Source: Ardenticatenaceae bacterium
GTDB taxonomy: Bacteria; Chloroflexota; Anaerolineae; Promineifilales; Promineifilaceae
NCBI GenBank assembly: GCA_020634415.1
Contig: JACKBT010000003.1
Span: 124,001 to 188,000 of the forward strand
DNA length: 64,000 nucleotides
Direction: 5' to 3'
Below the pieces are notes generated by a model, which ran no database searches, had not been told where the DNA came from, and saw only the letters and a program-made list of their open reading frames with translations. The position numbers were made by a program, and so were the translations under genes. Every line of letters starts with the position of its first letter. Position 1 is the stretch's first letter. Shown here piece by piece: positions 1 to 64,000 of this stretch.

Positions 1-153
1 CCCAAATTCAAGCGCATCACCGTCCTCCACCTTGCCCAAGACAATTATGAAGTGCATGGCGAATTTGCAGCCGATGACACAGCCGCCTCGAAATTACTGG
101 CAGGTTTTGCGGTGGCAGTCAACGATGTCTTTGCCGCCGCCAACGAGGATTAA
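1..153 (+). CDS. C-terminal end of an unidentified protein (5' truncated by window)
   Basis: An open frame runs from the first base to a TAA at 151-153 and encodes the last 50 residues of a protein whose start lies outside the window. The tail reads as a mixed alpha/beta segment ending FAAANED. I do not recognise the family and no motif is visible. Its coding character rests on the uninterrupted frame and on the intergenic hairpin repeat that begins right after the stop. Confidence 0.5.
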   Translation, partial: PKFKRITVLHLAQDNYEVHGEFAADDTAASKLLAGFAVAVNDVFAAANED

Positions 154-171
154 TTAACCACAAATACCGTA

Positions 172-237
172 GGGGCGGGACGACGCGGAAACGCATTGGA
201 TACAAACCAACACCTCATCTCCGCGTCGTCTCGCCCC
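172..237. repeat. Family A intergenic hairpin
   Basis: Imperfect inverted repeat of about 18 bp (arms 172-189 and 220-237, one mismatch) built on GGGGCGGGACGACGCGGA. The same arms recur at 11513-11577. It lies between the partial gene and the thiolase gene and has no T-run, so it is not an obvious terminator. Confidence 0.75.
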
Positions 238-259
238 CGCTCAATTACAGGAAAGATTT

Positions 260-1534
260 ATGAAAGAAGTAGTCATTGTTGAAGCAGTACGTACCCCAAT
301 CGGCCGTCACGGGGGCGCGTTAGAAAGTGTGCGTCCCGATGACATGGCCGCGCTGGTCATTAAAGAAGTTATCACGCGGACAGGCATTGATCCGCAGGTG
401 GTTGAAGAGGTTTATCTCGGCTGTGCCAATCAGGCCGGAGAAGATAACCGCAACGTAGCCCGTATGGCGACGCTGCTGGCTGGTCTGCCACAAAGCGTGG
501 CTGCCGTTACCTTCAACCGCCTCTGTGCCAGCGGCCTCAATGCCGTCAATCAGGCCGCCCGCGCCATTCGCTGCGGCGAGGGCGATGTCTTCATCGCTGG
601 CGGCGTGGAAAGTATGACCCGCGCCCCCTATTCCTTCCCCAAAAACTCCCGCGCCTGGGGGCCATCGGGCAATGTGACGGCCTACGATACAACGCTGGGC
701 TGGCGTTATCCCAATCCCCAAATGGAGGCGATGTTTCCGCTAGAAGCGATGGGCGAAACGGCCGAAAATATCTACGACCTCACCTGCTCCGGCCAGCTAG
801 AAGGCGGGGCAATTTCCCGCGAGGAGCAAGATGCCTTTTCGCTGGAAAGCCAGCGTCGCGCCTGTGAAGCCATTAACAACGGCTACTTCCAGCGCGAGAT
901 TGTGCCGGTCCCCATTCCCCAACGGCGCGGCGACCCCATTCTGGTGGATACGGACGAACACCCGAGGATTAAGTGGGCAGACGGCCGTTACACCCTCGAT
1001 ACCGACATGGCAACCCTAGCCAAACTGCGTCCCGCCTTCCGCAAAGGCGGCACCGTCACCGCCGGTAACGCCAGCGGCCTAAACGATGGGGCCTGTGCGG
1101 TGCTAATCATGTCTGCCGACAAAGCGGCCGAGTTGGGGCTGAACCCCCGCGCTCGTTGGCTGGCCTCCGGCGCGGCCGGCGTAGACCCGCGCACGATGGG
1201 GCTTGGCCCGGTGCCCGCCACCCACAAAGCCTTACAGCGGGCTGGCCTGACAATGGCCGACATAGACCTGATTGAACTGAACGAAGCCTTTGCCGTGCAG
1301 GCCCTGGCCGTCATGCGTGCAGCCGGGATGCGCCCCGAAATCACCAACGTCAACGGCGGGGCCATCGCTCTCGGCCATCCCCTTGGCTGCTCTGGTGCCC
1401 GCATTTTAACCACCCTGCTGCACGAAATGGAACGCCGCGCCGAAGCGGGGCAATCCATGCGCTACGGTCTGGCAACGCTGTGCGTGGGCGTGGGGCAGGG
1501 CGAAGCCGCAGTAATTGAGAGATTGGGAGATTAG
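260..1534 (+). CDS. Acetyl-CoA C-acyltransferase (thiolase)
   Basis: A 424-residue thiolase that cleaves or condenses 3-oxoacyl-CoA with CoA in the cytoplasm. The nucleophilic cysteine is Cys89 in the CASGLNAV motif. NEAFAVQ lies near residue 342, His373 in [17 protein letters not shown], and the second catalytic Cys408 in LCVGVGQG, so the active site is complete. The overall wording resembles 3-oxoadipyl-CoA / PaaJ-PcaF type thiolases, but the substrate cannot be fixed from sequence. The length is slightly above the usual 390-400, with the extra residues in the loop around 130-165. The stop codon falls inside a family B hairpin. HMG-CoA lyase (2623) and enoyl-CoA hydratase (57271) in the window make acyl-CoA or ketone-body catabolism plausible. 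Confidence 0.9.
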
Positions 1535-1579
1535 AGACTAGAAACTGGAGACTGACCAATCTCTAGTCTCCAGTCCCCA
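1522..1579. repeat. Family B hairpin (GAGACTAGAGACTGGAGAC type)
   Basis: Runs of GAGACTAGA/ACTGGAGAC followed by their complements CTCTAGTCTCCAGTCCCC, able to fold into an imperfect hairpin. The thiolase TAG (1532-1534) lies within the left arm. Other copies are at 12511, 17006, 33104 and 35332. Confidence 0.8.
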
Positions 1580-1585
1580 TGTATT

Positions 1586-2353: not shown

Positions 2354-2622
2354 GGGTAATTGGGTAATTGAGTAATTGGATCATGCCGCTTGTGGTGTTT
2401 TCGGGGTTGACGGGGACGGGAAAAGTTAGCTGGCGGGCGGAAGGAAAGCTCGTTTAGGGTACTGTAAATGACTTTGAGGAGAATGTAACGGCCGTTCTCA
2501 CTTATTTAGACCAACCTTAAGAATCGTAAGGAACACTACTGCCAACACTTCCAACAAGTAAACAAATTGATGCGTAGAAATGGGTGGCCCACACTCCCCA
2601 TCTTCTGCTCTCCCATTCCCAC

Positions 2623-13560: not shown

Positions 13561-14943
13561 ATGTTAAGCGTTTCCCAATTTCGAGAGAACACAACCATTG
13601 CCCTGCAAGACGTACAGTTGCAAGGGGCGTTGAAGGGGGTGAGCGGCGGCATGTTCACCAATCGCAACAATGCCCTGGCCGAAGTGCCAGATGTGGAGCA
13701 GCTGCGCGACCAGTTGAAGGCCATTCGCTCGGCCACGTTGGCGCGGCTGGCGGAGCATTTGGAGATGTTTGAGCGCAAGGCGCAAGCGGCGGGGGCGGTG
13801 GTGCATTGGGCCAAAGATGGGGCCGATGCCCGTGCCATCGTCCTGGATATTGCCCGCCGCCATGATGTGAAGCTGGTGACGAAGGGCAAATCTATGGTGA
13901 CGGAGGAGATTCACCTGAATGAGGCGTTGGCGGCGGCGGGGATTGATCCGGTGGAGACGGATTTGGGCGAGTACATCATCCAGTTGGCCGAGGAGCCGCC
14001 GTCGCACATCATTGCGCCGGCCATTCACAAAAACAAGGAGCAGATTACGGCTCTGCTGAGTGAGGTGTCGGGACGGCCGTTAGACCCTAATAACATTCCA
14101 GAGTTAACGGCCGTTGCCCGCCAACTTCTGCGCGAAAAGTTTCTGTCGGCGGGGATGGGCATTACGGGCGGCAATATTGGCGTGGCCGAGACGGGCAGTT
14201 TGGTGTTGGTGGAGAATGAGGGAAACGGCCGTATGGTCACGACCACGCCGCGTGTGCATGTGGCCCTGATGGGCATCGAAAAGTTGTGCGCCACCTGGGA
14301 TGATGCCGCCGTGTGGCTCTCCTTGCTGGCGCGGAGTGCGACAGGGCAGCCGCTTTCCATTTACACCAACATCATCACCGGTTCGCGCCGCAGCGATGAT
14401 GCGGATGGGCCGGAGGAAGTACATATTATTTTGGTGGACAACAACCGCAGTAAGCAAGTTGGCACGAAGTATGAGGAGGTGCTGCAATGTTTGCGCTGTG
14501 GGGCCTGTTTGAATGCCTGTCCTGTTTATCGCAAGGCGGGCGGCCATGCCTATGGCAGTCCTTACAGCGGGCCAATTGGGGCGGTGGTGTCACCGCTGAT
14601 TTTCGGGCTGGAGGAGTATGAGGCACTGCCGCACGCCAGCACGCTTTGCGGAGCCTGCCTGGACGTTTGCCCGGTGCGCATTGATTTGCCGCGTATGTTG
14701 CTGGAACTGCGGGCGGATGAGGTGGAGCGCAAGCTGGTGCCGCCGCTGGAGCGGATGGCGGAGCGCACAGTGGCCTTTGGCTTCCGCCATGAGAAGCTGA
14801 TGCGGTTGGGAGCTAATATGGGTCGGTTGATTCCGCTGCCGGTGATGGAAGTGAACGGCCGTAAACTCCCTCAACTCGCCCCCCGCTCTTTTAGGCAGAT
14901 GTGGAAAGCAGGGGAGTTGGAAGGGAACTCGGAGGAACTTTAA
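13561..14943 (+). CDS. lutB: LutB-like lactate utilization iron-sulfur protein
   Basis: A 460-residue protein with an N-terminal LUD domain (about residues 60-290; TKGKSMVTEEIHLNEAL and the GNIGVAETGSLVLVENEGN segment). A ferredoxin-like module with two [4Fe-4S] motifs follows: CLRCGACLNACPVYRK (about residue 306) and CGACLDVCPVRIDLPR (about 361). It is the central electron-transfer subunit of the LutABC lactate-oxidising complex in the cytoplasm. The last residues (GELEGNSEEL) and the TAA are encoded by the next family C repeat, so the natural C-terminus may have been altered. Start ATG 13561 follows AGGAG within a repeat. Confidence 0.92.
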   Translation: MLSVSQFRENTTIALQDVQLQGALKGVSGGMFTNRNNALAEVPDVEQLRDQLKAIRSATLARLAEHLEMFERKAQAAGAVVHWAKDGADARAIVLDIARRHDVKLVTKGKSMVTEEIHLNEALAAAGIDPVETDLGEYIIQLAEEPPSHIIAPAIHKNKEQITALLSEVSGRPLDPNNIPELTAVARQLLREKFLSAGMGITGGNIGVAETGSLVLVENEGNGRMVTTTPRVHVALMGIEKLCATWDDAAVWLSLLARSATGQPLSIYTNIITGSRRSDDADGPEEVHIILVDNNRSKQVGTKYEEVLQCLRCGACLNACPVYRKAGGHAYGSPYSGPIGAVVSPLIFGLEEYEALPHASTLCGACLDVCPVRIDLPRMLLELRADEVERKLVPPLERMAERTVAFGFRHEKLMRLGANMGRLIPLPVMEVNGRKLPQLAPRSFRQMWKAGELEGNSEEL

Positions 14944-21436: not shown

Positions 21437-21710
21437 GTGAAATTCTGAGGGGATGCGGTTAGAAGCCGTCTCTCCTCAAAGACAATAAGGGGGTGATAGG
21501 TTAATAATGGAAGCTGGCAGGCTTTTGCCCCAACCAGCGCGTGAGGAATATATGGTGAAATTGGGCGGACTCATGTTTAGGTTAGACAACCGCCCTTGTA
21601 TTGGCGACGAGATTCTTTTTGTTTGAACTTTTGCTCAGGGCAACGGCCGTTATCCGCGACGAGCCATTGGGCAGAACGAATCATAATTTAATTAGAGTAA
21701 GGAGGCTTGT

Positions 21711-22388: not shown

Positions 22389-23333
22389 ATGCAGTGGGAA
22401 CAAAACTTCCTGACGGTAAAAACGGCCGTTTTTACCCCCAGTGTACGCCAACAGCTTAAAAAAGCTGCGGCTTTGTGGCATACGGCCGTTGTTTTGTTCA
22501 AACTACGTGTTGTCTCTCTACTGCTGCTGTCTGCTTATGGCGGCGCGATGTTAGGCACAATGGCCACTGGGCAAGGTTCAGCCGGAGCCTGGATCATTCT
22601 TTCTCTAGCGGGTCTGCTCTCGGCCGGTGGTGCTTCGGGTATCAACCAATATCTGGAACGAGACCAGGACACGAAAATGCGGCGCACAGCGAAACGGCCG
22701 TTAGCCCAGGGCGAAATCACCAATCCCCAGCTTGTTCTCTGGCTAAGTTTGGGCATGGTGATTTTAGCAACTGGTCTGGCAGCGATGGTGAATGGGGCAA
22801 CGGCCGTATTCATCGCTCTGGGGGCCATCATCTATGTCGCGGTATACACCATCTGGCTCAAACCACGCACCATCGTCAACATCGTCATTGGTGGCGCAGC
22901 CGGCAGTTGTGCCGTATTAGCTGGTGGAGCGGCTATGGGGGCCTGGTCGGAAACGGCCGTCTGGCTTCTAGCCCTCCTCATCTTCGCCTGGACCCCCGTT
23001 CACTTTTGGGCCTTAGCCCTCGCCTACCGCGAAGATTACCAAGAAGCTCAATACCCCATGCTGCCAGCCCGCGTCTCAGCCACAGTCGCCGCCCGTTGGA
23101 CAGCCCTACACACCCTGCTCACCATATTTTGCGGGCTAGCCCTCGGCTTCTACCCCACCCTAGACTGGGTATATCTGGTTCCCATTGCCGCCTTATCCGT
23201 CTGGCTCGTCCAGAAAACATGGCAGCTCATGGCCAAACCAGAAAAGAAGCCAGCCTTAACTCTGTTCCATTTCTCAAACATCTACCTGGCAGCCGTCTTA
23301 ATCGTCATTCTGCTAGCACCAATTTGGAGGTAA
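22389..23333 (+). CDS. ctaB: Protoheme IX farnesyltransferase (heme O synthase)
   Basis: A 314-residue UbiA-family prenyltransferase with about nine membrane helices. It attaches a farnesyl group to heme B, giving heme O, the substrate of CtaA. The first Asp-rich motif is NQYLERDQDTKMRRTAKRPL (about residues 84-103) and the second aspartate region is YREDYQEAQYPML. It sits between CoxII and CoxI, starting 2 bases after the CoxII stop, so it is translated in the same unit. The N-terminal 25 residues are polar and less conserved. Confidence 0.93.
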   Translation: MQWEQNFLTVKTAVFTPSVRQQLKKAAALWHTAVVLFKLRVVSLLLLSAYGGAMLGTMATGQGSAGAWIILSLAGLLSAGGASGINQYLERDQDTKMRRTAKRPLAQGEITNPQLVLWLSLGMVILATGLAAMVNGATAVFIALGAIIYVAVYTIWLKPRTIVNIVIGGAAGSCAVLAGGAAMGAWSETAVWLLALLIFAWTPVHFWALALAYREDYQEAQYPMLPARVSATVAARWTALHTLLTIFCGLALGFYPTLDWVYLVPIAALSVWLVQKTWQLMAKPEKKPALTLFHFSNIYLAAVLIVILLAPIWR

Positions 23334-26010: not shown

Positions 26011-28050
26011 ATGTCTCCCTCCCCTTACCCCCCCCGCAGCAAATGGACACAAGAGCTTGAACGACTGGCCCTTATCGTCGAGAAAATAGTCAATCGCCTG
26101 ATTGGCAACAGCCGCCTCAATCCCTTCTATCATACTGATACCATTGCCGTTTTTTTGCTGGCAGTCGTCGGCATTACGGGCATCTATATCTTTCTCTTTT
26201 TCCAATACGGTTTTGATGCCTCCTACCAGGCTGTTGCTACGCGCATTGAAACGCCTATCATTGCCCGCATCATGAGGGCCATTCACCGCTATGCCTCTGG
26301 GGCGTTAGTGATTACCATTTTGTTGCACGCCTTCCGCACCCTATTTATGGAACGGTTTCGGGGGCCGCGCTGGCTGGCCTGGATATCTGGCATTGTGATG
26401 ACCTTCATTCTATGGCTGGCTGGCATTACGGGTTATTGGCTTATTTGGGATCAGCGTGCCCAGCTCATCAATGACCACTTTATTCGCTTTCTTAATCAGG
26501 CAACTGCATGGGCAACAGCTTATCGTGTGGCCCTGTTACGTGCGGATGTGACGGATAGAAGTTGGCCGCTTTTGTTCCTCATTTTGCTGGTGCATGTGGT
26601 GTTATTTTTGATTGTGGCTGGCTTTTTCTGGCTGCATATTCGCCACTTGCGAGCACCACGTTGGCTGCCGGAAATATCTTGGATGGCGGGAGCAACGGCC
26701 GTTCTCCTCATCACCGCTCTCCTCTTCCCCCTGGGCATGTTACCCGCCTTCAACTTCAACCAAGAAGCCGGGCGTGTGCTGCTTGATCCCATCTACCTCT
26801 ACTATCTGCCCCTTGTCGGCACAGGCTGGGATACCGCTTTGTGGGTCTTCATGTGGGCAGCCACCTTCATCGCCGCCGCCCTGCCCTGGACACGGCGCAA
26901 AAACCGCACCCCACAACCCACCATCACCATTCATGATAAACAATGCACCGGCTGCACCAAATGCGCCCGCGACTGCCCCTACAACGCCATCACCATGATT
27001 CCCCGCGACGATGATTCAGGGCATCAACTGCTAGCCGTGGTGGACACCGCCAAATGCGTTGGCTGCGGTATTTGCGTCGGCTCCTGCGATGATTTTTACG
27101 CCATTCAACTGGGCGAACAGCAGCCCGATGCCGCTAAACAGCGGCTGGATGCCCATCTACAACAGGCCAAAAGCCAGCATCCCGATAAGGACATCAAAGT
27201 GGTTTTCACCTGCCAGCGCCACGCGGCACAAGGGGCTAAACCTTATTTGCCCAACACCGTACAGAACGATCTTGTGGTCGAGATTATTGATTTGCCCTGC
27301 TCTGGGGCCATTCAGCCTAGTTTGCTGCCCTATGCGCTGGCACAAGGTGCCGCTGAAGTGGAGGTGGCTGGCTGCCCACCTTATGATTGTATGCACCGCA
27401 TGGGCAACATGCTAGAGGAGCAGCGGGTGACGAATGAGCGTGTGCCCCGTTTGCGGAAGCGGTATGACAATGTGCCGATTACGGCCGTTTGGCTCCCTCC
27501 CGACGACTTTGACATGGCCCTTAGCCGCACCCCCATCCCCACCAGCCAGGATGAAAGCGGCAATAGCCAGCCCGATTACGTCACGGGTCGCTCCATGATG
27601 CAATGGCTCTCCTGGCGTAACCTGGTCGTGGGCGGTGTCCTTTTAGGCTTCGTCCTCCTGGCCCAAATCTGGCTGACGGGTTTGCCCTACACCTCCCCAG
27701 CCAGCCCCACCGCCACCATTCAACTCACCCTGGACGATCCAGCCACCTACTTTTTCCGCCGGATGGGCGGGGCGGCTTATGAAGTGCGGGATCGGTTGAC
27801 AGGAGATGAAATCGAGGTGGTCTTGGCTGTTGACGAGGAAGTGGTGTGGACGGCCGTTTACCCCGCCGCCGACTTCTTCAGCCAAACCCTATCACCCACC
27901 TACGAAGAATTCAGCCTCGCCCCTGGCAGCCACCACATCCACCTTTACTGGACCGACACCACCACCCACTTCACCGACACCATCAGCGACCAACAAGTCA
28001 CCCTGCAAGCCGGCCAAATCCTTCGCGTACACGATCTATTGCCCAATTAA
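26011..28050 (+). CDS. Cytochrome b / 2[4Fe-4S] ferredoxin / MvhD-like fusion
   Basis: A 679-residue redox fusion. Residues 40-290 form a cytochrome b6-like membrane domain with two His pairs spaced by 13 residues (His92/His106 and His195/His209), enough for two b hemes. Residues 305-365 hold two [4Fe-4S] motifs (Cys312, 315, 318, 322 and Cys349, 352, 355, 359). Residues 395-500 resemble the MvhD/HdrA-linked iron-sulfur domain, with Cys401, Cys430, Cys455 and Cys460. A further transmembrane helix (about 538-556) precedes a small C-terminal beta domain. The ferredoxin and MvhD-like parts would lie on the cytoplasmic side. No Rieske or cytochrome c gene is adjacent. It could feed electrons from a cytoplasmic donor into the quinone pool or the oxidase; the function is inference. 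Confidence 0.8.
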   Translation: MSPSPYPPRSKWTQELERLALIVEKIVNRLIGNSRLNPFYHTDTIAVFLLAVVGITGIYIFLFFQYGFDASYQAVATRIETPIIARIMRAIHRYASGALVITILLHAFRTLFMERFRGPRWLAWISGIVMTFILWLAGITGYWLIWDQRAQLINDHFIRFLNQATAWATAYRVALLRADVTDRSWPLLFLILLVHVVLFLIVAGFFWLHIRHLRAPRWLPEISWMAGATAVLLITALLFPLGMLPAFNFNQEAGRVLLDPIYLYYLPLVGTGWDTALWVFMWAATFIAAALPWTRRKNRTPQPTITIHDKQCTGCTKCARDCPYNAITMIPRDDDSGHQLLAVVDTAKCVGCGICVGSCDDFYAIQLGEQQPDAAKQRLDAHLQQAKSQHPDKDIKVVFTCQRHAAQGAKPYLPNTVQNDLVVEIIDLPCSGAIQPSLLPYALAQGAAEVEVAGCPPYDCMHRMGNMLEEQRVTNERVPRLRKRYDNVPITAVWLPPDDFDMALSRTPIPTSQDESGNSQPDYVTGRSMMQWLSWRNLVVGGVLLGFVLLAQIWLTGLPYTSPASPTATIQLTLDDPATYFFRRMGGAAYEVRDRLTGDEIEVVLAVDEEVVWTAVYPAADFFSQTLSPTYEEFSLAPGSHHIHLYWTDTTTHFTDTISDQQVTLQAGQILRVHDLLPN

Positions 28051-33158: not shown

Positions 33159-33305
33159 CTCTGCTGCCCTATACGCCAGCATCCTTTGAAAGTTGCTGCC
33201 ATAAAATGAGTGCCATCTAAATGGTGTGTGATGGCAAGGTGAGCGGGCAACGGCCGTCTGCTGACGCAACATCTTCTTTTTGTTATACTGCCCCCTTATT
33301 TATCT

Positions 33306-38443: not shown

Positions 38444-38815
38444 ACATCACCTCATCATCATACATCAGTGCCTTGCACCGCCTCATACAGACAAACAGTA
38501 TACCAACAATCACACGGCCCTCGCCCAACTCTCAAAATCAGCCAGGCAACGGCCGTTTCCCCACCACCCCAGCCCACCTACTTTGAGCAACATAGACCTT
38601 TTTAGTCTGCCCCTCATTGCGCCAAAAAATTAACAGTAGATGAGTGAACTTTTAGGGAGAAAATGATAAATAATACGGATTCCGTGAAAATTTATTTAGA
38701 TTGCACTAATATTGCCCTGTTCAGCCTCGTGATTGTCACATAATTTGTCGGGTATCTTGGGTGGGAAAATCATTTATCGGTTTGTACATCTTACACAATA
38801 TAAGGAGAAGGTAAA
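38444..38815. other. Non-coding gap before the secreted-protein island
   Basis: Divergent promoter region between the minus-strand secreted protein and the M36 peptidase gene. It is AT-rich after 38580. It holds one ACGGCCGT palindrome (38549) and an AAGGAGAAGG ribosome-binding site at 38801-38810, just before the TTG start. I see no convincing -35/-10 pair or RNA gene. Confidence 0.6.
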
Positions 38816-51271: not shown

Positions 51272-51340
51272 GTCTGAATGGCTGTAACAAGAAAGGCTGA
51301 AAAGATAGCCACAAAGAAGAAAACCTGATTTCTATAATTG

Positions 51341-51377: not shown

Positions 51378-51494
51378 TGGACCGACAAACCAAATTGGTG
51401 AGAAAATCTATAGTTCTCTGTGCTTTTTATAGATATAATATGCGCTAATGATGTATTCCCCACACACTAAAAAAATAATATAGGAGGCTTCTCA

Positions 51495-51923: not shown

Positions 51924-51944
51924 CAAGCAACGGGATTAGTCCTC

Positions 51945-54900
51945 TTGCAATATTACCCTCACAACACTTATCTGGTTTGGGGAAGCCAGACTCAGGCCCT
52001 AGAGGCAGCTACATTAACCTCAGTACGGTGGCACGGACTGTTCCATCCAGCTTACAAAGTAGACAACTACCTGCGCACCTTCACCGGCACAATCCACAAC
52101 GTAGACATCATGTTCTACAACGATGGCAATATCAATGCCACCCTGGCAGCCATAGAGAGCTTGGGCGGCACGATTCTACAATATTATCCGGCCCAACCAG
52201 ACAAAGCTTTCTACGATGCGGTTGTCCAACTAGACGTTGCCCAATTAGACAGCGTTGCCCAACTCAACACGGTTCTTTGGCTGGGTCATCTTAGTCCAGA
52301 GCCGATCCTCGATGACGAAATGTCTTCTCAAATATTGGCGGGCAATCACCCCGGCAATGTGCCCGTCGTTGGGTACAATGCCTATCTGGCAGATTTGGGC
52401 TACGACGGCACAGGTGTCACCTGGGCCATTGTTGATACCGGTGTAGATTACGATCACCCCGACCTCAACACACACATCATCGGCGGCTACGAGTTCCCTG
52501 GTTCATGTAACACCGGCAATCCTGGTGATGACTGCGCTGGCGGTGGGCATGGCACACATGTAGCCGGCATTGTCGGCGGCACAGGCGTTGGTGATAGTGG
52601 TGGGCCATATACCGACCCCAATGGTTTTCTCTATGGCCTCGGTGTTGCCCCTGGGTACAGCATCTTTGCTATGAACTCTTTGTCTGCGCCTAGCTGGCCG
52701 CCGGCAGGGGGTTGGCAAGAACATAGCAAGCGGGCTGTGTTAGGCGGGGCCATTGGCGGCAACAACTCCTGGACCACCGGCGAAGGAACCAATCATGGTT
52801 ATCAGGCATCTGAACGCACCCATGACATCATGGTACGGGATGGCAACTTCGACACTACCACAATCGCTGAACCCTTTATTGAGGTTTTCTCGGCTGGCAA
52901 CTCTGGCCCTGGCACCAGTACGCTGACGGCTCCCAAGGAAGGCAAGAATCTGATTATAACCGCCAGCAGTCGTAACTTCCGTGCTGGTGATATTGATCTC
53001 ATTTCTAGTTTCAGCAGTCGTGGCCCGGCGGTAGACGGCCGTTGGGTTCCCACCATTACCTCTCCTGGCGAATCCATTGCCTCTACCCGCAACGACGAAG
53101 GCGGGTCCTGCGGCACAGCCATCGCTGGCACCAATGGCCTCTACTCCCTCTGTTCCGGTACCAGTATGGCAGCCCCACACACATCGGGAGCCATCGTACT
53201 GACAACAGAATGGTGGCGTACATTTAACAGCGGTGCAGACCCCAGCCCAGCTATGGCCAAAGCGCTAGTCGTTAACGGCTCTGTAGACATGGGTACGGCC
53301 GATATCCCCAACATCAACGAAGGTTGGGGGCGTGTCAATGTAACCAACATCATCAGCCCCAGCGTACCGGCCGTTTACTACGATCAGACCACAACTTTTG
53401 GCAGCACAGGCGATCAATGGGCTATTTCCGTAGGTGTTATAGATCCCAGCAAACCCTTACGCATCACCCTGGCCTGGTCAGATGCGCCTGGCGCAGTTGG
53501 AGCCAATCCGGCCCTCGTCAACAACCTCGACCTGACCGTAGAAAGCAATGGCAATACCTATTTGGGCAATGTGTTTAGCAGCGGTTGGTCAGCCACAGGC
53601 GGAACGGCCGATACCCTCAACAACCTGGAAAATGTATTCATCCAGAACCCCGGTGGCAACGCCATCATCACCATTGATGCCACCAACATCAGCGGCGACG
53701 GCGTACCCTACAATGCCGATATAACCGATCAAGACTTTGCCCTCGTCTGCTCCAACTGCAGCCTGGGACAAGATTTCTCTTTATCGGCAACACCAAATAC
53801 CCAAACAGTCTGTGCGCCCGCCAATGCTCTCTACAACGTCAATATTGGCTCAAACCTGGGCTTCAATGATGTTGTTTCGCTAAGCGCAAGCGGACAGCCC
53901 AATCCACCGAACTCAGCCGTATTCAGCGACAACAACCAACCAGCGCCCTACACCAGCACACTCACCATCGGCACCAACGGGGCTTCCTCTGGTAATTACA
54001 GCATCCAAATAGTTGGCATAGCTCCCACCAGCACCCATACCACCACTGTTCAACTCAACGTGGAAACGGGCGCACCGGGAGCCACACCCCTGGTGGCTCC
54101 GGCCGATGGCGCAACTGGTGTTTCCACCACCCCCACCTTTGAATGGACGGCCGTTACTGGAACCAGCAGCTACTACCTCGAAGTCGCTACCGATTCTGCC
54201 TTCAACACCATCGTCTACACCGCCACCATCAACGCCCCCAACACATCCCACGTGGCAGGCATGACGCTAAATACAGATACGGTGTACTACTGGCGCATCA
54301 CCGGCACAAACGCCTGTGGTGGCGGCACAGCCTCCAGCGTCTTCAGCTTCAGCACCGGTTCCATCTACTGCAACACCCCCGCCCTAGGCATCCCCGATAA
54401 CTCCCCCACCGGTATCTCCAATGACATGGTTATCGGTGGCAGCGGCAGCATCACCGACCTGGACATCTCTCTGGATGTCAGCCACACCTGGGTAGGCGAC
54501 CTCATCTTCACCCTGGAACATGTAGACACCGGCACCACCGCCACCTTCTACGACCGTCCCGGTTACACTGGCTCCGGCTTTGGCTGCTCCAGCGACAACG
54601 TGGATGTCACCGCCAACGATGAAGGCCCCGATGGCGACATCGAAAGCCAATGTGACACCAACCCCGCCATCAGCGGCAATCGCGTCGGCGGCGACCCGGC
54701 AAACAGCAGCCTCTTGGCCGCCTTCGACGGCGAGAGCCTGAGCGGCACCTGGCGGCTGACCGCCTCGGACAATGCCGGTGGCGACACTGGCACCATCAAC
54801 GAATGGTGTATCATCCCTGCTGCCCAAGCAGTTGCCCCCGCCATCGAGGTAGCCCCCAGCAGCCTCAGCAGCGACCAGGCAACCAACACCCAGGTCACCC

Positions 54901-56616: not shown

Positions 56617-56658
56617 TAAAAAAAGAGGCAGTGGCACAAACCACTGCCTCTTTTTTTA
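56617..56658. terminator. Bidirectional terminator of the secreted island
   Basis: AAAAAAAGAGGCAGTGG and CCACTGCCTCTTTTTTT form a perfect stem with A/T runs on both sides. It ends the subtilisin gene and, on the minus strand, the next gene, whose stop codon at 56656-56658 touches it. Confidence 0.93.
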
Positions 56659-57204
56659 TGGGGCAAAAAAGGTGATCTCTATAAACTGGAATTCGACCGT
56701 TTCCCCCCAACTCTCTGCCACCACGCCCACATCACCAGCGACGGCCGCTTTGCCCACCCACAAGATTTCCCGATTGAGCCACACCGTTATCTCATCACCA
56801 CGCACATCCAGCCAAAACTCGTTTGATGCTGGCCCAGTGCGCACGTGCGGCCAGGGCTGCAGCGGCATCAGCACCGTCTCGCCCTGCCACACCGTCACAT
56901 AACCCAATGGGGATACGCCCACTGCAAGATACTCGGCTGCGCTGCCGAGGGCGAGGCCATAAACGCTGTCTTGTTCGCCAGATTGGTAAACGGCCGTTCC
57001 CCGCACCGTAAACTGCTCCGCCAATCCCTCGTTTAACCACAACACCCCTCGCCTCTGCACCGATAAGGCAATATCCGATTTCTGCCAGCGCATGTCGCCC
57101 ACTGGTCGGGGATCAAACAGGCCGATACCGATGAGCAGCACCATCAGCCCAATCACCACCGCCAGTAAGACGGCCATTCCGCGCCACACCTTATCATCAT
57201 CCAT
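56656..57204 (-). CDS. Membrane-anchored hypothetical protein
   Basis: A 182-residue protein from the chosen start MDDDKVWRGM. One N-terminal transmembrane helix (about residues 8-31) is followed by an extracytoplasmic beta-rich domain (AEYLAVGVSPLGYVTVWQGETVLMPLQ, then EITVWLNREILWVGKA). This resembles the LamG/DUF1080-type jelly-roll domains of Chloroflexota secreted proteins, though not securely. A much longer upstream frame (to 57519) overlaps the start of the enoyl-CoA hydratase gene and has no membrane logic, so it is rejected. It is convergent with the subtilisin gene and divergent from 57271. Confidence 0.65.
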   Translation of the reverse strand: MDDDKVWRGMAVLLAVVIGLMVLLIGIGLFDPRPVGDMRWQKSDIALSVQRRGVLWLNEGLAEQFTVRGTAVYQSGEQDSVYGLALGSAAEYLAVGVSPLGYVTVWQGETVLMPLQPWPHVRTGPASNEFWLDVRGDEITVWLNREILWVGKAAVAGDVGVVAESWGETVEFQFIEITFFAP

Positions 57205-57270
57205 AGCACACCAGTATAGCCCCATCCCCGCCAAACTTGAACCCCCGCTACGACCTGCTAAACTTAGGTC

Positions 57271-58062
57271 ATGAGCATTCATTTCCAGCACAACAACACA
57301 GGCATTGCCCTCCTGCAAGTCAACCGACCGCAACAACGTAATGCCCTGAACTGGGCCACCCAAGAGGCTTTTGCCGAGGCGGTAACGGCCGTTGCCCACA
57401 ACCCCGCCATCCGCGTCCTCATCATCACCGGCAGCGGCCCTCATGCCTTTGTCTCCGGCGGCGACCTCAAAGAACTCAGCCAACATTCTGCCCCCAGCAC
57501 AGGACAGCGGCTCTACCACACCATGAACCAGGCCCTCCGCCAGCTAACCCAGTTGCCCATCCCTGTGCTGGCGGCCGTCAATGGTGATGCTTTTGGCGGC
57601 GGCTGCGAGATTCTAACCGCCTGCGACATCCGCCTGGCTGCGCCACACGCCCGCTTTAGCTTCGCCCAAATTCGCAATGGCCTGACAACGGGCTGGGGCG
57701 GCACAGGTCGTCTTGTGCGCCTCATCGGGCACAGTCGGGCGATGGAACTGCTCCTCACCGGCCGCATTTTCAGCGCCAGCGAGGCCCAGCAGATAGGGTT
57801 GATACATCGTGTGCTTGAGGCGGATGAGGATTTGCTGACGGCCGTTTACACCACCGCCGCCGAACTCAGCCAACTGCCCCGCCAGGCCCTCGCCAGCCTC
57901 AAAAGCCTCGTCTACACCGCCTCCACCCACGATCTCGAAACCACCAACCAGCGCGAAGCCGAACTCTTCGCCCAACTCTATGCCCAACCCGACCATCTGG
58001 AAGCCCTCAACGCTTTTTTGGAAAAACGGCCGCCAAACTTCAACCAACCCCTTGACAATTAA
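57271..58062 (+). CDS. Enoyl-CoA hydratase/isomerase family protein
   Basis: A 263-residue crotonase-fold protein. The oxyanion-hole motifs are present: VSGGDLKEL (about residues 61-69) and NGDAFGGGCEILTACDIRLA (from 104). Of the two catalytic glutamates of classic crotonase, one is retained (Glu159 in HSRAMELLLTG). The other position reads Gln133 in FAQIRNGL by my alignment, so hydration of simple enoyl-CoA is not certain. Isomerase, hydrolase or methylglutaconyl-type activity are possible. It is followed after 14 bp by a methyltransferase gene. Confidence 0.85.
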   Translation: MSIHFQHNNTGIALLQVNRPQQRNALNWATQEAFAEAVTAVAHNPAIRVLIITGSGPHAFVSGGDLKELSQHSAPSTGQRLYHTMNQALRQLTQLPIPVLAAVNGDAFGGGCEILTACDIRLAAPHARFSFAQIRNGLTTGWGGTGRLVRLIGHSRAMELLLTGRIFSASEAQQIGLIHRVLEADEDLLTAVYTTAAELSQLPRQALASLKSLVYTASTHDLETTNQREAELFAQLYAQPDHLEALNAFLEKRPPNFNQPLDN

Positions 58063-58898: not shown

Positions 58899-60692
58899 AT
58901 GAGCAGCGAAAACGGAAAACTTCCCCAATGGGACATGAGCGTGGTTTATTCTGGCCTGGATTCACCGGAATTTGAAGCCGATTTCCAGGCCATCATTCAG
59001 GCTATTGCCGATTTGGCAACATTTTTTGATGACGAGACCATTAACCGCGTGGAAGCGGAGCCGGAAAATGTGGTGGCAACATTAGAAACGGCCGTTACCC
59101 GCTACAACACCACCCTCGACAAACTCTACACCCTCTATGTCTACATCCTCTCCTTCGTCGTCACCAACTCCCGCAACAATCAGGCCCAAGCCCGCCTCAG
59201 CGAACTACAACAACATCTGGCCCGCCTCAGCCTCATGGGCACACGGCTCACAGCCTGGTTAGGCTCCCTCAATGTAAACAAGTTGATAGAGCAATCGGCC
59301 GTTGCCCGTGACCACGCCTACATCCTCCACCGCGCCCAACAAGCCGCCAGCCATCTCATGGCCCCCATCGAAGAAGCCCTGGCGGCCGATTTGACCCTCA
59401 CCGGCAGCAGCAGTTGGCGGCAGCTCTTTAACACCTACGTCTCCCAACTCAGCGTAGACATCGAGCTAGAGGGCGAGACCAAAAAACTACCCCTCACCGC
59501 CGCCCAAAACCTCAGCTACAACCCAGACCGTGATGTGCGCCGCCGTGCCCATGAAGCCGTCGAAGCCACGCTCAAAAGCGCCATTGTGCCTTGCGCCGCC
59601 GCCCTCAACAGCCTCAAAGGTGAATCGCTCACGCTCACCCAAAAACGCGGCTGGGACAGCCCGCTGGACGAAGTGCTGTTTGATAACGTGATTGACCGCA
59701 CCACATTGGATGCCATGATGACGGCCGTTCGCCATGCCTACCCCGACATGCGCCGTTACCTCAAAGCCAAAGCCCGCGCCCTCGGCCTGCCCATCCTCAA
59801 ATGGTATGATCGCCTCGTCCCCCTCGGCCAAAGCAGCCAATCCTGGTCCTACCGCGATGCCCAAACCTTCGTCATCGAGCAGTTCGCCACCTACTCCCCG
59901 CGCCTCAGCGAGATGGCGCAGCGGGCCTTCAGCGAAAATTGGATTGATTCCGCACCTGGCGATGGCAAGCGAGGCGGTGCTTTCTGCATCTGGCTGCGAC
60001 AGGGCGAATCGCGCATTCTCACCAATTTTGAGCCAAGTTTTACGGCCGTTGGCACCCTGGCCCACGAATTAGGTCACGCCTATCACAACCTCAATCTCAT
60101 CAACCGCACCCCCCTGCAACGCGAAATGCCCATGACCCTGGCCGAAACCGCCAGCACCTTTTGCCAAAAAATCGTCGAAGAAGCGGCCCTGGCCGCCGCC
60201 GATGATCATGATAAGCGCATCATTTTAGACGGCCGTTTAGAATATGCCGTTCGCGTTCTCCTCGGCGCACCCAGCGACTTCGCCTTTGAAACCAACCTCT
60301 TCGAGAGACGCAAACAACGCGCCCTCTCCCCCGACGAGCTGTGCGAATTGATGCACGCCGCCCAAAAGGAAACCTTCGGCGATGCTGTAGACAATGACTA
60401 CCTCTACCCCTACCGTTGGGTCTACGTCCCCCATTTCTACGGCAGCAACTACTACAACTTCCCCTACATCTTCGGCCTCCTCTTCGGCCTCGGCCTCTAC
60501 GCCTATTACCAAACCACCCCCGACCAGTTCAAAGCGGGCTACGATGACCTGCTGGCCTCCACCGGCATGGGCAATGCCGCCGAACTGGCCGCCCGCTTCG
60601 GCATCAACATCCGCGACACCGCCTTTTGGAACGCCAGCCTGGATGTGTTACGGGGAGACATTGCCGCCTTCGACCACTTGGTCGGCGAATAA
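58899..60692 (+). CDS. pepF: M3 family oligoendopeptidase
   Basis: A 597-residue cytoplasmic zinc peptidase. The active site is TLAHELGHAYHNL (HExxH, about residues 386-392), with the third ligand Glu in MTLAETASTFCQKIVEE. The tail has the M3 ending DLLASTGMGNAAELAARFGINI. Such PepF/M3B enzymes trim short peptides. ATG 58899 is supported by GGAG eight bases upstream; an earlier ATG at 58869 lies in the hairpin repeat. The gene is followed almost directly by the uracil-DNA glycosylase. Confidence 0.93.
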   Translation: MSSENGKLPQWDMSVVYSGLDSPEFEADFQAIIQAIADLATFFDDETINRVEAEPENVVATLETAVTRYNTTLDKLYTLYVYILSFVVTNSRNNQAQARLSELQQHLARLSLMGTRLTAWLGSLNVNKLIEQSAVARDHAYILHRAQQAASHLMAPIEEALAADLTLTGSSSWRQLFNTYVSQLSVDIELEGETKKLPLTAAQNLSYNPDRDVRRRAHEAVEATLKSAIVPCAAALNSLKGESLTLTQKRGWDSPLDEVLFDNVIDRTTLDAMMTAVRHAYPDMRRYLKAKARALGLPILKWYDRLVPLGQSSQSWSYRDAQTFVIEQFATYSPRLSEMAQRAFSENWIDSAPGDGKRGGAFCIWLRQGESRILTNFEPSFTAVGTLAHELGHAYHNLNLINRTPLQREMPMTLAETASTFCQKIVEEAALAAADDHDKRIILDGRLEYAVRVLLGAPSDFAFETNLFERRKQRALSPDELCELMHAAQKETFGDAVDNDYLYPYRWVYVPHFYGSNYYNFPYIFGLLFGLGLYAYYQTTPDQFKAGYDDLLASTGMGNAAELAARFGINIRDTAFWNASLDVLRGDIAAFDHLVGE

Positions 60693-60700
60693 AATTTCTT

Positions 60701-61408
60701 TTGGACTCCCTCTCCCAACTACACGCCGAGATGCAAGCCTGCCGCCGCTGCCTGGAAGCGGGCCACGAAATCACGCCGCCGGCCATCTTTCGCGGGCAAG
60801 CCACAGCGCAAGTTTTGTTAATTGGGCAGGCTCCCGGTGTAACCGAGGTGGAAGCGGGACGGCCGTTTAACGCCAGCAGCGGTCGTCGTCTGTTCCAATG
60901 GTTGGGGGAAGCGGGCTGGGATGAGAATGATTTTCGCGCACGGCACTATATGACGGCCGTTACCAAATGCTACCCTGGCAAAGCCGCCAACGGCAAAGGC
61001 GACCGCGTCCCCAGCAAAGCCGAGCAAGTCCTCTGCCGCTCTTTTTTGGAACGTGAAATCAGCCTGGTTAACCCCCGTGTCATTATCCTCGTCGGTGGAT
61101 TGGCGATCAAGCTCCTCTTCCCCGCCTCGGCCAAATTGAAAGAGGTGATTGGAACGGCCGTTTACTTCCCTCCCCAATCCCTGGCCCACAACCCCACCAA
61201 CTTCAACCTGAACGATGCCCAATGGCTCAAACACCCTCTCGCCCCTCGCCCCTCACCTCTCACCTCTCTGCCGGAGGACGGCCGTTACATCATCCCCCTG
61301 CCCCACCCCTCCGGGGCCAGCCTGTGGCCCAACAAATCCGCCAACCAGACCCTCATCAACCAGGCCATCAACATCCTCACCCAACTCCGCACAGGATATA
61401 ATCTATAA
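60701..61408 (+). CDS. Fe-S uracil-DNA glycosylase family protein
   Basis: About 235 residues. Motif 1 is LIGQAPGVTEVEAGRPF with the downstream SSGRRLFQWL; the C-terminal motif is LPHPSGAS. Four cysteines in the pattern CRRC near residue 15, KCYPG and LCRSF fit the [4Fe-4S] cluster of family 4/5 enzymes. It removes uracil from DNA. The start is uncertain: TTG 60701 is used, but ATG 60731 and a frame overlapping the M3 gene from 60626 are possible. A low-complexity stretch, HPLAPRPSPLTSLPED, interrupts the segment before the catalytic motif and looks repeat-derived. Confidence 0.82.
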   Translation: MDSLSQLHAEMQACRRCLEAGHEITPPAIFRGQATAQVLLIGQAPGVTEVEAGRPFNASSGRRLFQWLGEAGWDENDFRARHYMTAVTKCYPGKAANGKGDRVPSKAEQVLCRSFLEREISLVNPRVIILVGGLAIKLLFPASAKLKEVIGTAVYFPPQSLAHNPTNFNLNDAQWLKHPLAPRPSPLTSLPEDGRYIIPLPHPSGASLWPNKSANQTLINQAINILTQLRTGYNL

Positions 61409-61545: not shown

Positions 61546-61587
61546 ATGGACTGAATAATTACCTAATTTTCACAATTGGAGGAACAC

Positions 61588-62676
61588 ATGAACCACACCC
61601 CCTTTAACGGCTTAGGCATGAATATGGGCAACCTTTCCCGGCTTTCTGCCGCCCAAACCCGCTCCATCAGCCCAGAAAATTTCACGGGCGAGAAGAGCCA
61701 AGGTGGCAAAGCCACCGAAGGCACAGGGGCCATTCACGCCACCGGCCTCGGTCAGGGCTGGAAAATCTCCCCCTCCGTCCGCATACAGCCCGGCCAAACA
61801 TTTGCAATGGCCGACATCAGTGGCCCTGGGGCCATCCAGCAAATCTGGATGACCCCCACCGGCAACTGGCGTTTCAGCATCCTGCGCATCTACTGGGACG
61901 AACAGGAGCAGCCCGCCGTTGAATGTCCGGTAGGCGACTTCTTTGCCTCCGGCTGGGGGCGTTTTGCGCCTCTCTCCTCCCTCGCCGTATGCGTCAACCC
62001 CGGCAGTGCCTTCAACTGTTATTGGGAGATGCCCTTCCAAAAGCAGTGCCGCATCACCATGACCAACATTGGCGACGAGGCCATGACCCTCTATTACCAA
62101 ATCAACTACACCCTTACCGACGTGCCCACCGACTGTGCCTATTTCCATGCCCAATTTCGCCGCGTCAACCCTCTGCCCTATCAGGATGTCTACACCATCC
62201 TCGATGACGTACAGGGGCAAGGACATTATGTGGGCACATACATGGCCTGGGGCGTAAACAACAGCGGCTGGTGGGGCGAAGGCGAAATCAAATTCTTCCT
62301 CGACGGTGACGATCCCTTTCCCACGATTTGCGGCACGGGTACGGAGGATTATTTTTGCGGCTCCTATAACTTTGAAAACAAAGAGACGCGCCAATATCAG
62401 GCTTTCTCCACCCCCTACGCTGGCCTGCACCAAATTCTGCGCCCCGACGGTGTGTACCAGTCGCAAACACGCTTCGGCATGTACCGCTGGCACATCCCCG
62501 ACCCCATTCGCTTTCAACAAGACCTGAAGGTGACGATTCAGGCGTTGGGCTGGCGGCAAGACCGCCGCTATTTGCCGCTGCAAGATGACATCGCCTCGGT
62601 AGCTTACTGGTATCAGACGCTGCCGACTGCGCCCTTCCCCACGCTGCCGCATCGGGATTATTTGGAAGTGATTTGA
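61588..62676 (+). CDS. DUF2961 / GH172-family protein
   Basis: A 362-residue protein of the DUF2961 family, whose members include GH172 fructofuranosidase-type and difructose-anhydride enzymes. Recognised segments are TGLGQGWKISPSVRIQPGQ-like strands near residue 55, ISGPGAIQQIWM, RIYWDEQEQPAVECPVGDFF (about 93-112), the YYQINYTLTD strand and the conserved GTGTEDYFCGSYNF. The Glu of GTGTEDYF is a candidate catalytic residue. There is no signal peptide, so it appears cytoplasmic. GGAGG before ATG 61588 supports the start. It is bracketed by two family D hairpins and has no ACGGCCGT site. Confidence 0.85.
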   Translation: MNHTPFNGLGMNMGNLSRLSAAQTRSISPENFTGEKSQGGKATEGTGAIHATGLGQGWKISPSVRIQPGQTFAMADISGPGAIQQIWMTPTGNWRFSILRIYWDEQEQPAVECPVGDFFASGWGRFAPLSSLAVCVNPGSAFNCYWEMPFQKQCRITMTNIGDEAMTLYYQINYTLTDVPTDCAYFHAQFRRVNPLPYQDVYTILDDVQGQGHYVGTYMAWGVNNSGWWGEGEIKFFLDGDDPFPTICGTGTEDYFCGSYNFENKETRQYQAFSTPYAGLHQILRPDGVYQSQTRFGMYRWHIPDPIRFQQDLKVTIQALGWRQDRRYLPLQDDIASVAYWYQTLPTAPFPTLPHRDYLEVI

Positions 62677-63005
62677 AAGGGGTAAAACGTAAACTTAATG
62701 GGATTCATTTACTTCGTACAGGCGCAAAATGTGCGCCATATGCGTAAAAAGATCAAAGATTTCGCAGATTACACTGATTTTACTTTTTGCCATCGTAACC
62801 GTTCACCCTCCCGGAGGTTTTCCCTCGAGAGAGCCTTCGTAAAAGAAGCCTCCGGGAGGATTTTCGCTCGAGGAACTGAACGATTACTTGCCATCTGCAA
62901 AATCCATGTAATCCCTGATGACTTTGGTTGTGGCTTCGCCACGTTATGTTTTACGTTTTACGCTTTACCCATTACAATTCTCTATCTCATCTGAGGATAA
63001 TTGAT
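62677..63005. other. Intergenic region with hairpins upstream of the ABC ATPase
   Basis: Non-coding gap of 329 bp. It holds the family D hairpin (62803-62875) and GTAAAACGTAAA-type strings at its two ends (62687 and 62945). A longer ABC reading frame from 62928 would start inside this region. No RNA gene is seen. Confidence 0.7.
62803..62875. repeat. Family D hairpin, loop orientation 2
   Basis: Flanks CACCCTCCCGGAGG and CCTCCGGGAGGATTTT match the copy at 61479, while the 31-base loop (starting TTTTCCCTCGAGAG) is its reverse complement. Confidence 0.85.
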
Positions 63006-63986
63006 ATGGATTCCTTTATCACCTGCGAAAATCTGGTCAAAATTTATCAACTGATGGACGACATCGAAGTTCAGGCGCTGCAAGGGCTGGATTTAACGGT
63101 GGAACAAGGTGAAATGGTGGGGGTGATCGGGGCCAGTGGCAGTGGTAAGTCTACGCTGTTAAATGTGTTGGGTGGGTTGATTCGGCCGACGGGGGGGCAG
63201 GTGGTGGTAAACGGCCGTCCCCTCTTCAAACTCACCTCAGTCCAACTAGACCGCTATCGGCGCGAAGAAGTCGGTTTTGTCTGGCAGCAAGGCGCACGCA
63301 ACCTCATCCCCTATCTCAGTGCCATCGAAAATGTGGAGTTCCCCATGCTGTTGGCCGGACAATCTGGCCGCAAAGCCCGCCAACAGGCCGAACGGCTGAT
63401 GGAGATGGTGGGCCTGGCCGAACGCCGCAACCACCAACTTGGCTCCCTCTCCGGCGGTGAGCAGCAGCGCGTGGCCATTGCCATTGCCCTGGCGAATGAC
63501 CCCTCTCTCTTGCTGGCCGATGAGCCAACGGGTGAACTGGACTCTGTGACGGCGCAGCAAATTTACGATATGTTCAAGACGTTTAACCGGGAATTGCACC
63601 TGACAACGCTGATTGTGAGCCATGATCCGGGCATTGCGCGGCATGTGGACAGGGTGATTGCTATTCGCGACGGTAAGTTAGCCAGTGAGACGGTGCGCCG
63701 AGAACGGCCGTCTGACCTGCACTCCGACGAACATCACGACGACCACTTTGAAGAACTCATCGTCCTCGACTCGGCCGGCCGCCTGCAAATCCCCAAAGCC
63801 CAACGCGAAGAGCTAAACATCCGGCGACGTGTCACCCTGGAAGTTGTGCCTGAAGGCATTCTGATTAAACCAGCCAATTCAGAGGAAGAACTGCGGCGGG
63901 AACGGCCGAAAGCAGGCGAACCCTCTCAGCAAAAAACCAGCTCACGCTGGCAGCAGCTTCTCACCACCTGGCGGCGCAGCCGGTAA
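63006..63986 (+). CDS. ABC transporter ATPase with C-terminal AbrB-like domain
   Basis: A 326-residue protein. Residues 1-225 form a MacB/LolD-type ABC ATPase: Walker [10 protein letters not shown] (about residues 41-49), signature [12 protein letters not shown], Walker [13 protein letters not shown] and the H-loop His in LIVSHDPG. After a linker ([12 protein letters not shown]), residues about 252-290 ([20 protein letters not shown], then [17 protein letters not shown]) have the AbrB/SpoVT DNA-binding beta-hairpin pattern. A C-terminal fusion of this kind is unusual; it could dimerise the ATPase or regulate its own operon. The permease would be expected beyond 64000. ATG 63006 fits the start of the ATPase fold. 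Confidence 0.88.
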
Positions 63987-64000
63987 AAGAACAGAAAGGT

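What the first reader, a model, noticed from the sequence alone, without database searches (positions are those of the whole stretch)
1..64000. HIP1-like overrepresented octamer palindrome ACGGCCGT
By hand I counted about 75 exact ACGGCCGT sites in 64 kb, usually as AACGGCCGTT, where base composition predicts only one or two. Many more are one-base variants (TCGGCCGT, ACGGCCGA). They occur in both strands' genes and in spacers, at all three codon phases (encoding TAV, NGR or RPL). Codon preference alone would favour one phase. This is the behaviour of the cyanobacterial HIP1 palindrome but with a different sequence, and I know of no description in Chloroflexota.
Basis: partly seen in the sequence, partly recalled or inferred. 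Interest (0 to 1): 0.85.

Follow-up and report, generated by a model that had tools for sequence, protein, structure and literature searches.

The report
Over-represented octamer linked to orphan methyltransferase
This bacterial DNA carries the eight-letter palindrome ACGGCCGT about once per kilobase, some 50 to 75 times more often than chance; related genomes carry it, or a sister octamer, thousands of times, mostly together with a probable DNA-methylating enzyme that has usually lost its restriction-enzyme partner, which makes an old puzzle from cyanobacteria testable in another phylum.

Summary
Confirmed: 77 ACGGCCGT in 64 kb against 1.0 in dinucleotide shuffles. Codon use does not explain it: synonymous shuffles give at most 15, observed 72. 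In relatives it is genome-wide: 19 of 396 genomes of one class carry 991-2102 per Mb; G010 carries TCGGCCGA instead (7668), G191 GCGGCCGC, the NotI site (12040). Standing sites resist silent change: 21 of 22 intact against 41 of 170 same-composition octamers. A split methyltransferase, 'A', is in 20 of these 21 genomes and 32 of the other 375. A NotI-family endonuclease gene occurs in 16 of 53 genomes searched, always beside A, but in only 1 of 21 ACGGCCGT genomes. Best reading: the octamer is the target of a NotI-type methyltransferase that mostly lost its endonuclease; selection or biased repair then raised and kept the sites. Target, methylation and function are inferred. Exceptions: G006 lacks A; G253 and G191 keep the endonuclease; G010's A is frameshifted; some genomes with A alone lack the octamer. 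The window's own genome is not held.

The parts
1..64000 (.). whole window: 77 ACGGCCGT sites over its length (1 to 10 per 4 kb); every position is listed in the Full report section
22422..22960 (.). densest run: five sites (22422, 22482, 22694, 22800, 22953) in the ORF 22389-23333
60859..61285 (.). four sites (60859, 60953, 61154, 61278) in the ORF 60626-61408
26695..26702 (.). one of three sites (26695, 27481, 27850) in the TAV phase of the ORF 26011-28050; over the three sites 1 of 23 aligned positions in octamer-rich relatives is also ACGGCCGT
14073..14114 (.). closest pair of sites (14073 and 14107, 34 bp apart)
2488..2495 (.). site between the chosen ORFs
21643..21650 (.). site between the chosen ORFs
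33250..33257 (.). site between the chosen ORFs
38549..38556 (.). site between the chosen ORFs
56990..56997 (.). site outside the chosen ORFs, but inside a further possible ORF (56656-57519, minus strand)

Best explanation
ACGGCCGT is a highly iterated palindrome of HIP type and is the recognition sequence of a NotI-type DNA methyltransferase (here 'A', about 660 aa) that in this Anaerolineae lineage works mostly without its restriction endonuclease. The older state was a NotI-like restriction-modification pair (A plus a PF12183 nuclease). In the octamer-rich lineage the nuclease was usually lost, A stayed, and its target accumulated to 1-2 copies per kb and is now kept against silent substitution. 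Change of A's outer-letter specificity gave the sister octamers TCGGCCGA and GCGGCCGC. SHOWN: enrichment genome-wide in relatives, three sister octamers, silent-site conservation, A's association, the NotI-family nuclease beside A, and its absence, breakage or remnants in other genomes. INFERRED: that A methylates the octamer, that the pair is the older state, that A causes the accumulation, and how (selection for a methyl mark, or methyl-directed repair bias).
For: 77 v 1.0 expected. 19 of 396 class genomes at 991-2102 per Mb, 17-116 times the reversed-pattern control; TCGGCCGA 7668 in 5.1 Mb in G010, next densest about 320 per Mb; GCGGCCGC 12040 in 8.0 Mb in G191, control 2, next densest about 540 per Mb. 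None of the 220 new genomes of a phylum sample is comparable (at most 73 per Mb). Conservation where amino acids are identical: 21/22, 20/20 and 21/22 v 41/170, 42/158 and 138/215 same-composition octamers. A in 20 of 21 octamer genomes v 32 of 375 others (not corrected for kinship). PF12183 in 16 of 53 genomes, matches within 400 bp of A in all 16; E down to 3.7e-58; the only PDB match of a nuclease profile at E up to 0.1 is NotI, 3bvq, E 0.018. G191, whose octamer is the NotI site, has the NotI-family gene beside A. Nuclease or remnant beside A in 2 of 20 octamer genomes v 16 of 28 others. PF00145 (m5C) was not found in 4 of 8 ACGGCCGT genomes and GCGGCCGC has no adenine; in PF01555 the split protein A is the one shape seen in 7 of those 8.
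Against: G006 has 6514 sites and no A in two searches. G253 and G191 keep the nuclease and still have the octamer. G010's A lies in two overlapping frames. Of 30 A loci without a nuclease trace, 5 show no enrichment in the stretch read (G220, G165, G373; G179 and G363 at contig ends). G163, G289, G360 and G213 have CGGCCG 10-18 times over expectation with no A found (one search scored at most three candidates per genome, G163 was rechecked). Octamer labels cluster on the tree of A, so A and octamer may simply be co-inherited, and the events are few. A D12 methyltransferase is also in all 10 ACGGCCGT genomes tested, so a second enzyme is not excluded. The window's own A is not seen.
Confidence: 0.6

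Rival explanations
1. The octamer is a by-product (compatible with A being its enzyme): methyl-directed mismatch repair, as Elhai proposed for cyanobacteria, keeps mutations that create the methylated site, so sites rise to about 1 per kb without a function of their own.
For: Density near the predicted 1 per kb; 47 of 61 single-letter deviations lie at the outer letters; near-random spacing in the window.
Against: In Elhai's model a G next to the methylated C drives the ratchet; GGCC already holds G-C, so the model as printed does not predict a fixed outer A, T or G. Densities reach 2.1 per kb. Silent letters of standing sites are almost never changed, although repair bias could give that too.
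Confidence: 0.3
2. A is only a co-inherited marker; another octamer-reading protein (a different methyltransferase, a nucleoid protein or a recombination factor) drives the accumulation.
For: G006 has the octamer without A; four core-enriched genomes without A found; labels cluster on A's tree; D12 methyltransferases in all 10 ACGGCCGT genomes tested.
Against: The nuclease family beside A is that of NotI, which cuts GCGGCCGC (recalled), the octamer of G191, and all three octamers share its core. D12 proteins range from 31 to 77% identity to that of G016 in the octamer genomes compared (one query only); PF00145 not found in 4 of 8.
Confidence: 0.22
3. Codon, codon-pair or protein bias.
For: The TAV phase is commonest (41 of 72).
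Against: Synonymous shuffles reach at most 15 v 72, and every phase exceeds its mean (41/23/8 v 6.4/1.5/0.04); sites also lie outside ORFs (0.73-1.42 per kb). Causality looks reversed: TAV 43 v 10.3 expected, 41 of 43 written ACGGCCGTN; NGR 12 v 3.2, 12 of 12 written AACGGCCGT.
Confidence: 0.01
4. DNA-uptake signal of naturally competent cells (like DUS/USS).
For: Density, conservation in place and a flanking preference resemble what I recall of such signals.
Against: Palindromic; outer letter changes between relatives; lower density outside ORFs than inside. Uptake genes were not examined.
Confidence: 0.05

Closest known systems
HIP1 (GCGATCGC) of cyanobacteria; Elhai 2015, PMC4390886 (seen: outline, found passages, sections 2.3, 2.5.3, 3.3, 3.5 and part 1 of 2 of 3.4)
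   Same: CG-NN-CG core with a variable outer letter, palindromic octamer, 300-2700 per Mb there and 991-2102 here, deviations at the outer letters, alternate octamers in single genomes, methyltransferase reported there and proposed here
   Different: core CGGCCG instead of CGATCG (0 in the window); candidate enzyme is NotI-type; its restriction partner is still visible in relatives; another phylum. Whether a second, shorter-core enzyme exists here, as GATC enzymes do there, is open (D12 proteins)
Alternate HIPs (GGCGCC, rCCGGy, GCsGC; derivatives TCGATCGA and GGGATCCC), same paper
   Same: replacement of one iterated palindrome by another, with a matching methyltransferase or a changed letter
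   Different: there single strains or pairs; here one octamer marks 19 of 396 genomes, and two further octamers one genome each
NotI restriction-modification (nuclease PF12183; PDB 3bvq/3c25)
   Same: neighbour of A is a NotI-family nuclease; same CGGCCG core; GCGGCCGC in G191
   Different: nuclease missing in most octamer-rich genomes; the sequence of the characterised NotI methyltransferase was not at hand for comparison
Chi sites of RecBCD (recalled)
   Same: over-represented octamer; NurA (end-resection) genes lie near A in 8 of 48 loci
   Different: palindromic and methyltransferase-linked; no link to recombination tested

Membership tests
Highly iterated palindromes (HIP type) | palindromic octamer far above expectation | tested here: met
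   77 v 1.01; 19 of 396 genomes at 991-2102 per Mb
Highly iterated palindromes (HIP type) | in genes in all phases, and in spacers | tested here: met
   phases 41/23/8 plus 5 outside; 218/126/40 plus 22 and 171/95/42 plus 11 in two relatives
Highly iterated palindromes (HIP type) | single-letter deviations concentrated at the first and last letters | tested here: met
   24 and 23 v 1-4 at each inner position; same trend in G371 and G354
Highly iterated palindromes (HIP type) | matching methyltransferase in the genome | tested here: inconclusive
   candidate A in 20 of 21 octamer genomes, its target inferred; window genome not held
Highly iterated palindromes (HIP type) | the site is methylated in the cell | not testable with these tools
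   no read data
HIP1 proper | sequence GCGATCGC | tested here: not met
   its core CGATCG occurs 0 times in the window
NotI restriction-modification systems (for protein A) | NotI-family endonuclease beside the methyltransferase | tested here: met
   16 of 53 genomes, all beside A. Among the 21 ACGGCCGT genomes only 1, so for most of them this feature is not met and they hold the methyltransferase half alone
NotI restriction-modification systems (for protein A) | amino-methyltransferase domain with SAM site and PPY motif | tested here: met
NotI restriction-modification systems (for protein A) | methylates CGGCCG-core octamers | not testable with these tools
   needs enzyme or read data
DNA-uptake sequences | promotes uptake; competence genes | not tested
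   not examined

The most novel reading that the evidence does not exclude
A restriction-modification system was domesticated into a genome-wide epigenetic code: after the endonuclease was lost, the methylated octamer became a functional landmark, for instance a methyl-dependent Chi-like signal for DNA-end processing by the NurA and HerA genes that lie near A in several octamer-rich genomes, strong enough to shape protein sequence (TAV, NGR) and to forbid silent change at standing sites.
Probability: 0.12. Interest if true: 0.93.

Novelty: new variant of a known kind. Interest (0 to 1): 0.8.

Why it matters
What makes highly iterated palindromes rise has been open since HIP1, partly because in cyanobacteria octamer and methyltransferases track the phylogeny closely (Elhai says so himself). 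Here, in another phylum, there are three sister octamers, genomes whose NotI-type endonuclease is intact, broken, a remnant or gone, and relatives without enrichment. That allows comparisons which the cyanobacterial case offers poorly: loss of the nuclease, change of the outer letter, enrichment of the 6-bp core alone. It also shows that such a motif can bend protein sequence and is held even at silent positions.

Tried and rejected
Maximum-order Markov statistics are uninformative here, because the inner 6- and 7-mers are inflated by the octamer itself; I used composition, dinucleotide and synonymous-codon nulls.

m5C methyltransferase (PF00145): not found in 4 of 8 ACGGCCGT genomes, so not required. 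D12 methyltransferase (PF02086): in all 10 ACGGCCGT genomes of that search, but 31-77% identical to that of G016; as I recall the family makes m6A, which GCGGCCGC cannot carry. Kept open as a second enzyme.

Deep positional conservation: none. At about 53% protein identity window sites match in 3 of 42 aligned positions v 58 of 902 for same-composition octamers; against loci without the octamer 0 of 56 v 24 of 1172. This argues against fixed regulatory positions. In the short G253 v G307 alignment only 1 of 3 sites is shared.

CCGGCCGG: no extreme genome among 40 searched (largest 2300 in 7.4 Mb, control 1016). Residues of A that separate octamer from non-octamer rows: one column only. Single-sequence PDB searches with the nuclease found nothing meaningful; the profile found NotI weakly. 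Foldseek's best hits for A are tRNA and other methyltransferases and a spermidine synthase, not DNA enzymes.

How counts were made. The 16 genomes were picked by hand from 29 loci. The 396- and 251-genome sets were drawn by the tool around G016, which I chose for its octamer. In one search A was counted present by eye from the E-value-sorted, truncated list: 48 fetched loci plus 4 fragment hits (G080, G142, G144, G218); paralogues at 40% identity or less were counted absent; one search scored at most three candidates per genome. Of the 53 genomes, G001 (2887 in 6.6 Mb) and G014 lie outside the 396. In one search one HMM seed (L204) ran into A, so hits overlapping the A frame were ignored. Genome sizes are rounded by the tool, so densities are approximate.

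Literature; only PMC4390886 was opened. Of 196 papers holding the string ACGGCCGT 20 were listed; none of those titles or abstract starts concerns this motif. Absence from print is not established.
Full report
OBSERVATION. The window holds 77 exact ACGGCCGT, at 981, 1712, 2488, 3945, 3999, 4708, 5209, 5404, 7530, 8892, 9593, 10144, 10250, 11863, 12219, 13241, 14073, 14107, 14225, 14855, 16417, 16508, 18345, 18506, 20079, 20355, 21354, 21643, 22422, 22482, 22694, 22800, 22953, 26695, 27481, 27850, 29445, 29807, 29922, 30391, 30600, 33250, 33576, 33762, 34860, 35107, 36223, 38549, 39207, 39323, 41079, 42296, 43100, 46746, 47435, 50771, 53035, 54147, 55050, 56064, 56346, 56990, 57385, 57838, 58171, 58366, 58471, 59088, 59721, 60042, 60229, 60859, 60953, 61154, 61278, 63211 and 63704. 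Dinucleotide shuffles give 1.01 (maximum 3 in 100). CGGCCG occurs 139 times, 27 expected from composition.

CODONS DO NOT EXPLAIN IT. Of the 72 sites inside 46 hand-chosen ORFs, 41/23/8 lie in the three phases. Permuting synonymous codons across genes (300 times) gives 6.4/1.5/0.04 on average and never more than 15 in all. The motif goes with altered proteins instead: TAV tripeptides 43 v 10.3 expected, 41 of 43 written ACGGCCGTN; NGR 12 v 3.2, all 12 written AACGGCCGT. One-letter deviations number 24 and 23 at the outer letters and 1-4 at each inner letter. Flanks differ by lineage: A at -1 in the window (104 of 154; C 4), C at -1 in G371 (321 of 816) and G354 (261 of 640).

IT IS GENOME-WIDE IN RELATIVES AND CLADE-LIMITED. 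The window's genome is not held. A cytochrome b query gave 29 loci; ACGGCCGT is the top palindromic octamer in 8 of them (L001-L006, L016, L021), and in L010 it is replaced by TCGGCCGA (35 copies, 0 of ACGGCCGT). In 396 genomes of the class of G016 (record titles say Anaerolineae), 19 carry 991-2102 ACGGCCGT per Mb, 17-116 times the reversed-pattern control. Of the other 377, eight exceed 100 per Mb by my reading (G289 514, G163 421, G051 179, G213 161, G249 119, G083 and G298 110, G128 104). TCGGCCGA stands out in G010 (7668 in 5.1 Mb; next G163 and G360 near 320 per Mb), GCGGCCGC in G191 (12040 in 8.0 Mb, control 2; next G107 540 per Mb with control 238 per Mb), CCGGCCGG in none of 40. In a phylum sample of 251 genomes (220 not seen before) only G016, the centre, is high; the new ones reach at most 73 per Mb. 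Another group has the 6-bp core raised without choice of outer letter: G163, G289, G360, G213 (10-18 times) and G051, G128, G336, G233, G083 (3-5 times). The window's cytochrome oxidase subunit I is 88% identical to an unnamed protein and 80% to one on a contig of 560207 bases, the length of G016:C10.

STANDING SITES ARE KEPT, THEN TURN OVER. G371 v G354, blastn-aligned 16.6 kb at 71% identity: 25 of 39 sites intact (25 of 31 in the other direction) v 11-12% of same-composition octamers; G366 v G394, 11.9 kb at 89%: 24 of 27 v 47%. In codon alignments all sites give 23 of 40, 22 of 33 and 23 of 26 v 48 of 517, 48 of 472 and 145 of 297; restricted to identical amino acids 21 of 22, 20 of 20 and 21 of 22 v 41 of 170, 42 of 158 and 138 of 215; G253 v G307 offers one site only (1 of 1), and in its DNA alignment 1 of 3 is shared. 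At about 53% protein identity no excess is left: 3 of 42 v 58 of 902. So the density persists while positions change slowly. Silent changes at standing sites are suppressed or undone; whether by selection or repair is not told.

THE NotI CONNECTION. Beside A in G191, whose octamer is GCGGCCGC, lies a gene of the NotI endonuclease family (PF12183, E 5.5e-11). A search of 53 genomes found the family in 16, and in all 16 a match lies within 400 bp of A (coordinates); G007 has a second copy beside another PF01555 gene. By group: 1 of 21 ACGGCCGT genomes (G253), 0 of 1 TCGGCCGA (G010), 1 of 1 GCGGCCGC (G191), 0 of 10 core-enriched, 14 of 20 others. Reading the neighbourhoods adds remnants in G281 and G075, and shows the gene in two pieces in G203 and G208. 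Of 48 A loci read, nuclease or remnant in 2 of 20 octamer genomes v 16 of 28 others. Arranged as: octamer in 18 of 30 loci without trace v 2 of 18 with trace, Fisher p 0.001; leaving out 6 contig-edge loci 16 of 24 v 2 of 18, p 0.0004; neither corrected for kinship. A profile of nine nucleases matches only NotI in the PDB (3bvq, E 0.018). That NotI cuts GCGGCCGC is recalled.

READING. Cytosine methylation is the only kind that all three octamers can carry at one shared place, since GCGGCCGC has no adenine; PF00145 is not found in 4 of 8 ACGGCCGT genomes; A is the best shared candidate among the families tested (7 of 8 in the first set). I therefore think that A is a NotI-type methyltransferase, possibly N4-cytosine (inference), that outlived its nuclease and whose site then spread. 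On the 34-row tree of A the ACGGCCGT rows fall into two supported groups: one of 9 rows with G010 and G191, one of 10 rows with four core-only genomes. These two join G233, G091, G203, G281 and G162+G187 in an unresolved fork; the other 9 non-octamer rows form a separate group (support 89/98). The root is drawn at the midpoint. This fits a few changes of specificity in one lineage, and equally warns that independent events are few.

WHY SITES RISE is open. Elhai's repair ratchet predicts about 1 per kb but not a fixed outer A, T or G here. Selection for a methyl mark fits the silent conservation. A Chi-like role is speculation: NurA-like genes lie next to or near A in 8 of 48 loci (G366, G307, G191, G010, G381, G003, G223, and 3.7 kb away in G399), all octamer-rich, with HerA-like genes in reach in G366, G010 and G223; a HerA-like gene without NurA lies 2.6 kb from A in G203, which lacks the octamer. 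The other octamer-rich loci, among them the whole second tree group, have neither in the stretch read.

LIMITS. The relatives are largely metagenome assemblies; a missing gene can be incompleteness. Nothing here measures methylation.

Noticed in passing
window 38816-56567: Four giant ORFs (1326, 1418, 1309, 1540 aa; a 142-aa ORF lies before the last) that share C-terminal Big_9/cadherin-like repeats; the first carries an M36 fungalysin, the last a subtilase.
   Followed up: partly
window 26011-28050: Cytochrome b N-terminal domain, 4Fe-4S domains and an FlpD domain in one 679-aa ORF; relatives at 27-50% identity in 29 genome loci.
   Followed up: partly
window 1-64000: CTAG strongly under-represented: 77 v 245 expected from composition; also among the lowest 4-mers in most relatives read.
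   Followed up: no
L132-L139 (G163, G289, G360, G213): CGGCCG 10-18 times over expectation without a preferred outer letter and with no protein A found: a second, unexplained way to the same core.
   Followed up: partly
G191, G163, G326, G270 (whole genomes): The reversed-pattern controls, all with core GCCGGC, are nearly absent (TGCCGGCA 1-5, AGCCGGCT 1-4, CGCCGGCG 1-4 per genome), which suggests avoidance of GCCGGC.
   Followed up: no
L151 12078-16383, L116 8749-10780, L142 6390-10098: Gene order A, NurA, unknown protein of about 215 aa, HerA (HerA not seen in L116).
   Followed up: partly
window, L149, L175: The preference just outside the octamer differs by lineage: A at -1 in the window, C at -1 in G371 and G354.
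   Followed up: no
G007:C1:1255936-1257692: Second NotI-family endonuclease gene beside a different PF01555 methyltransferase ORF.
   Followed up: no
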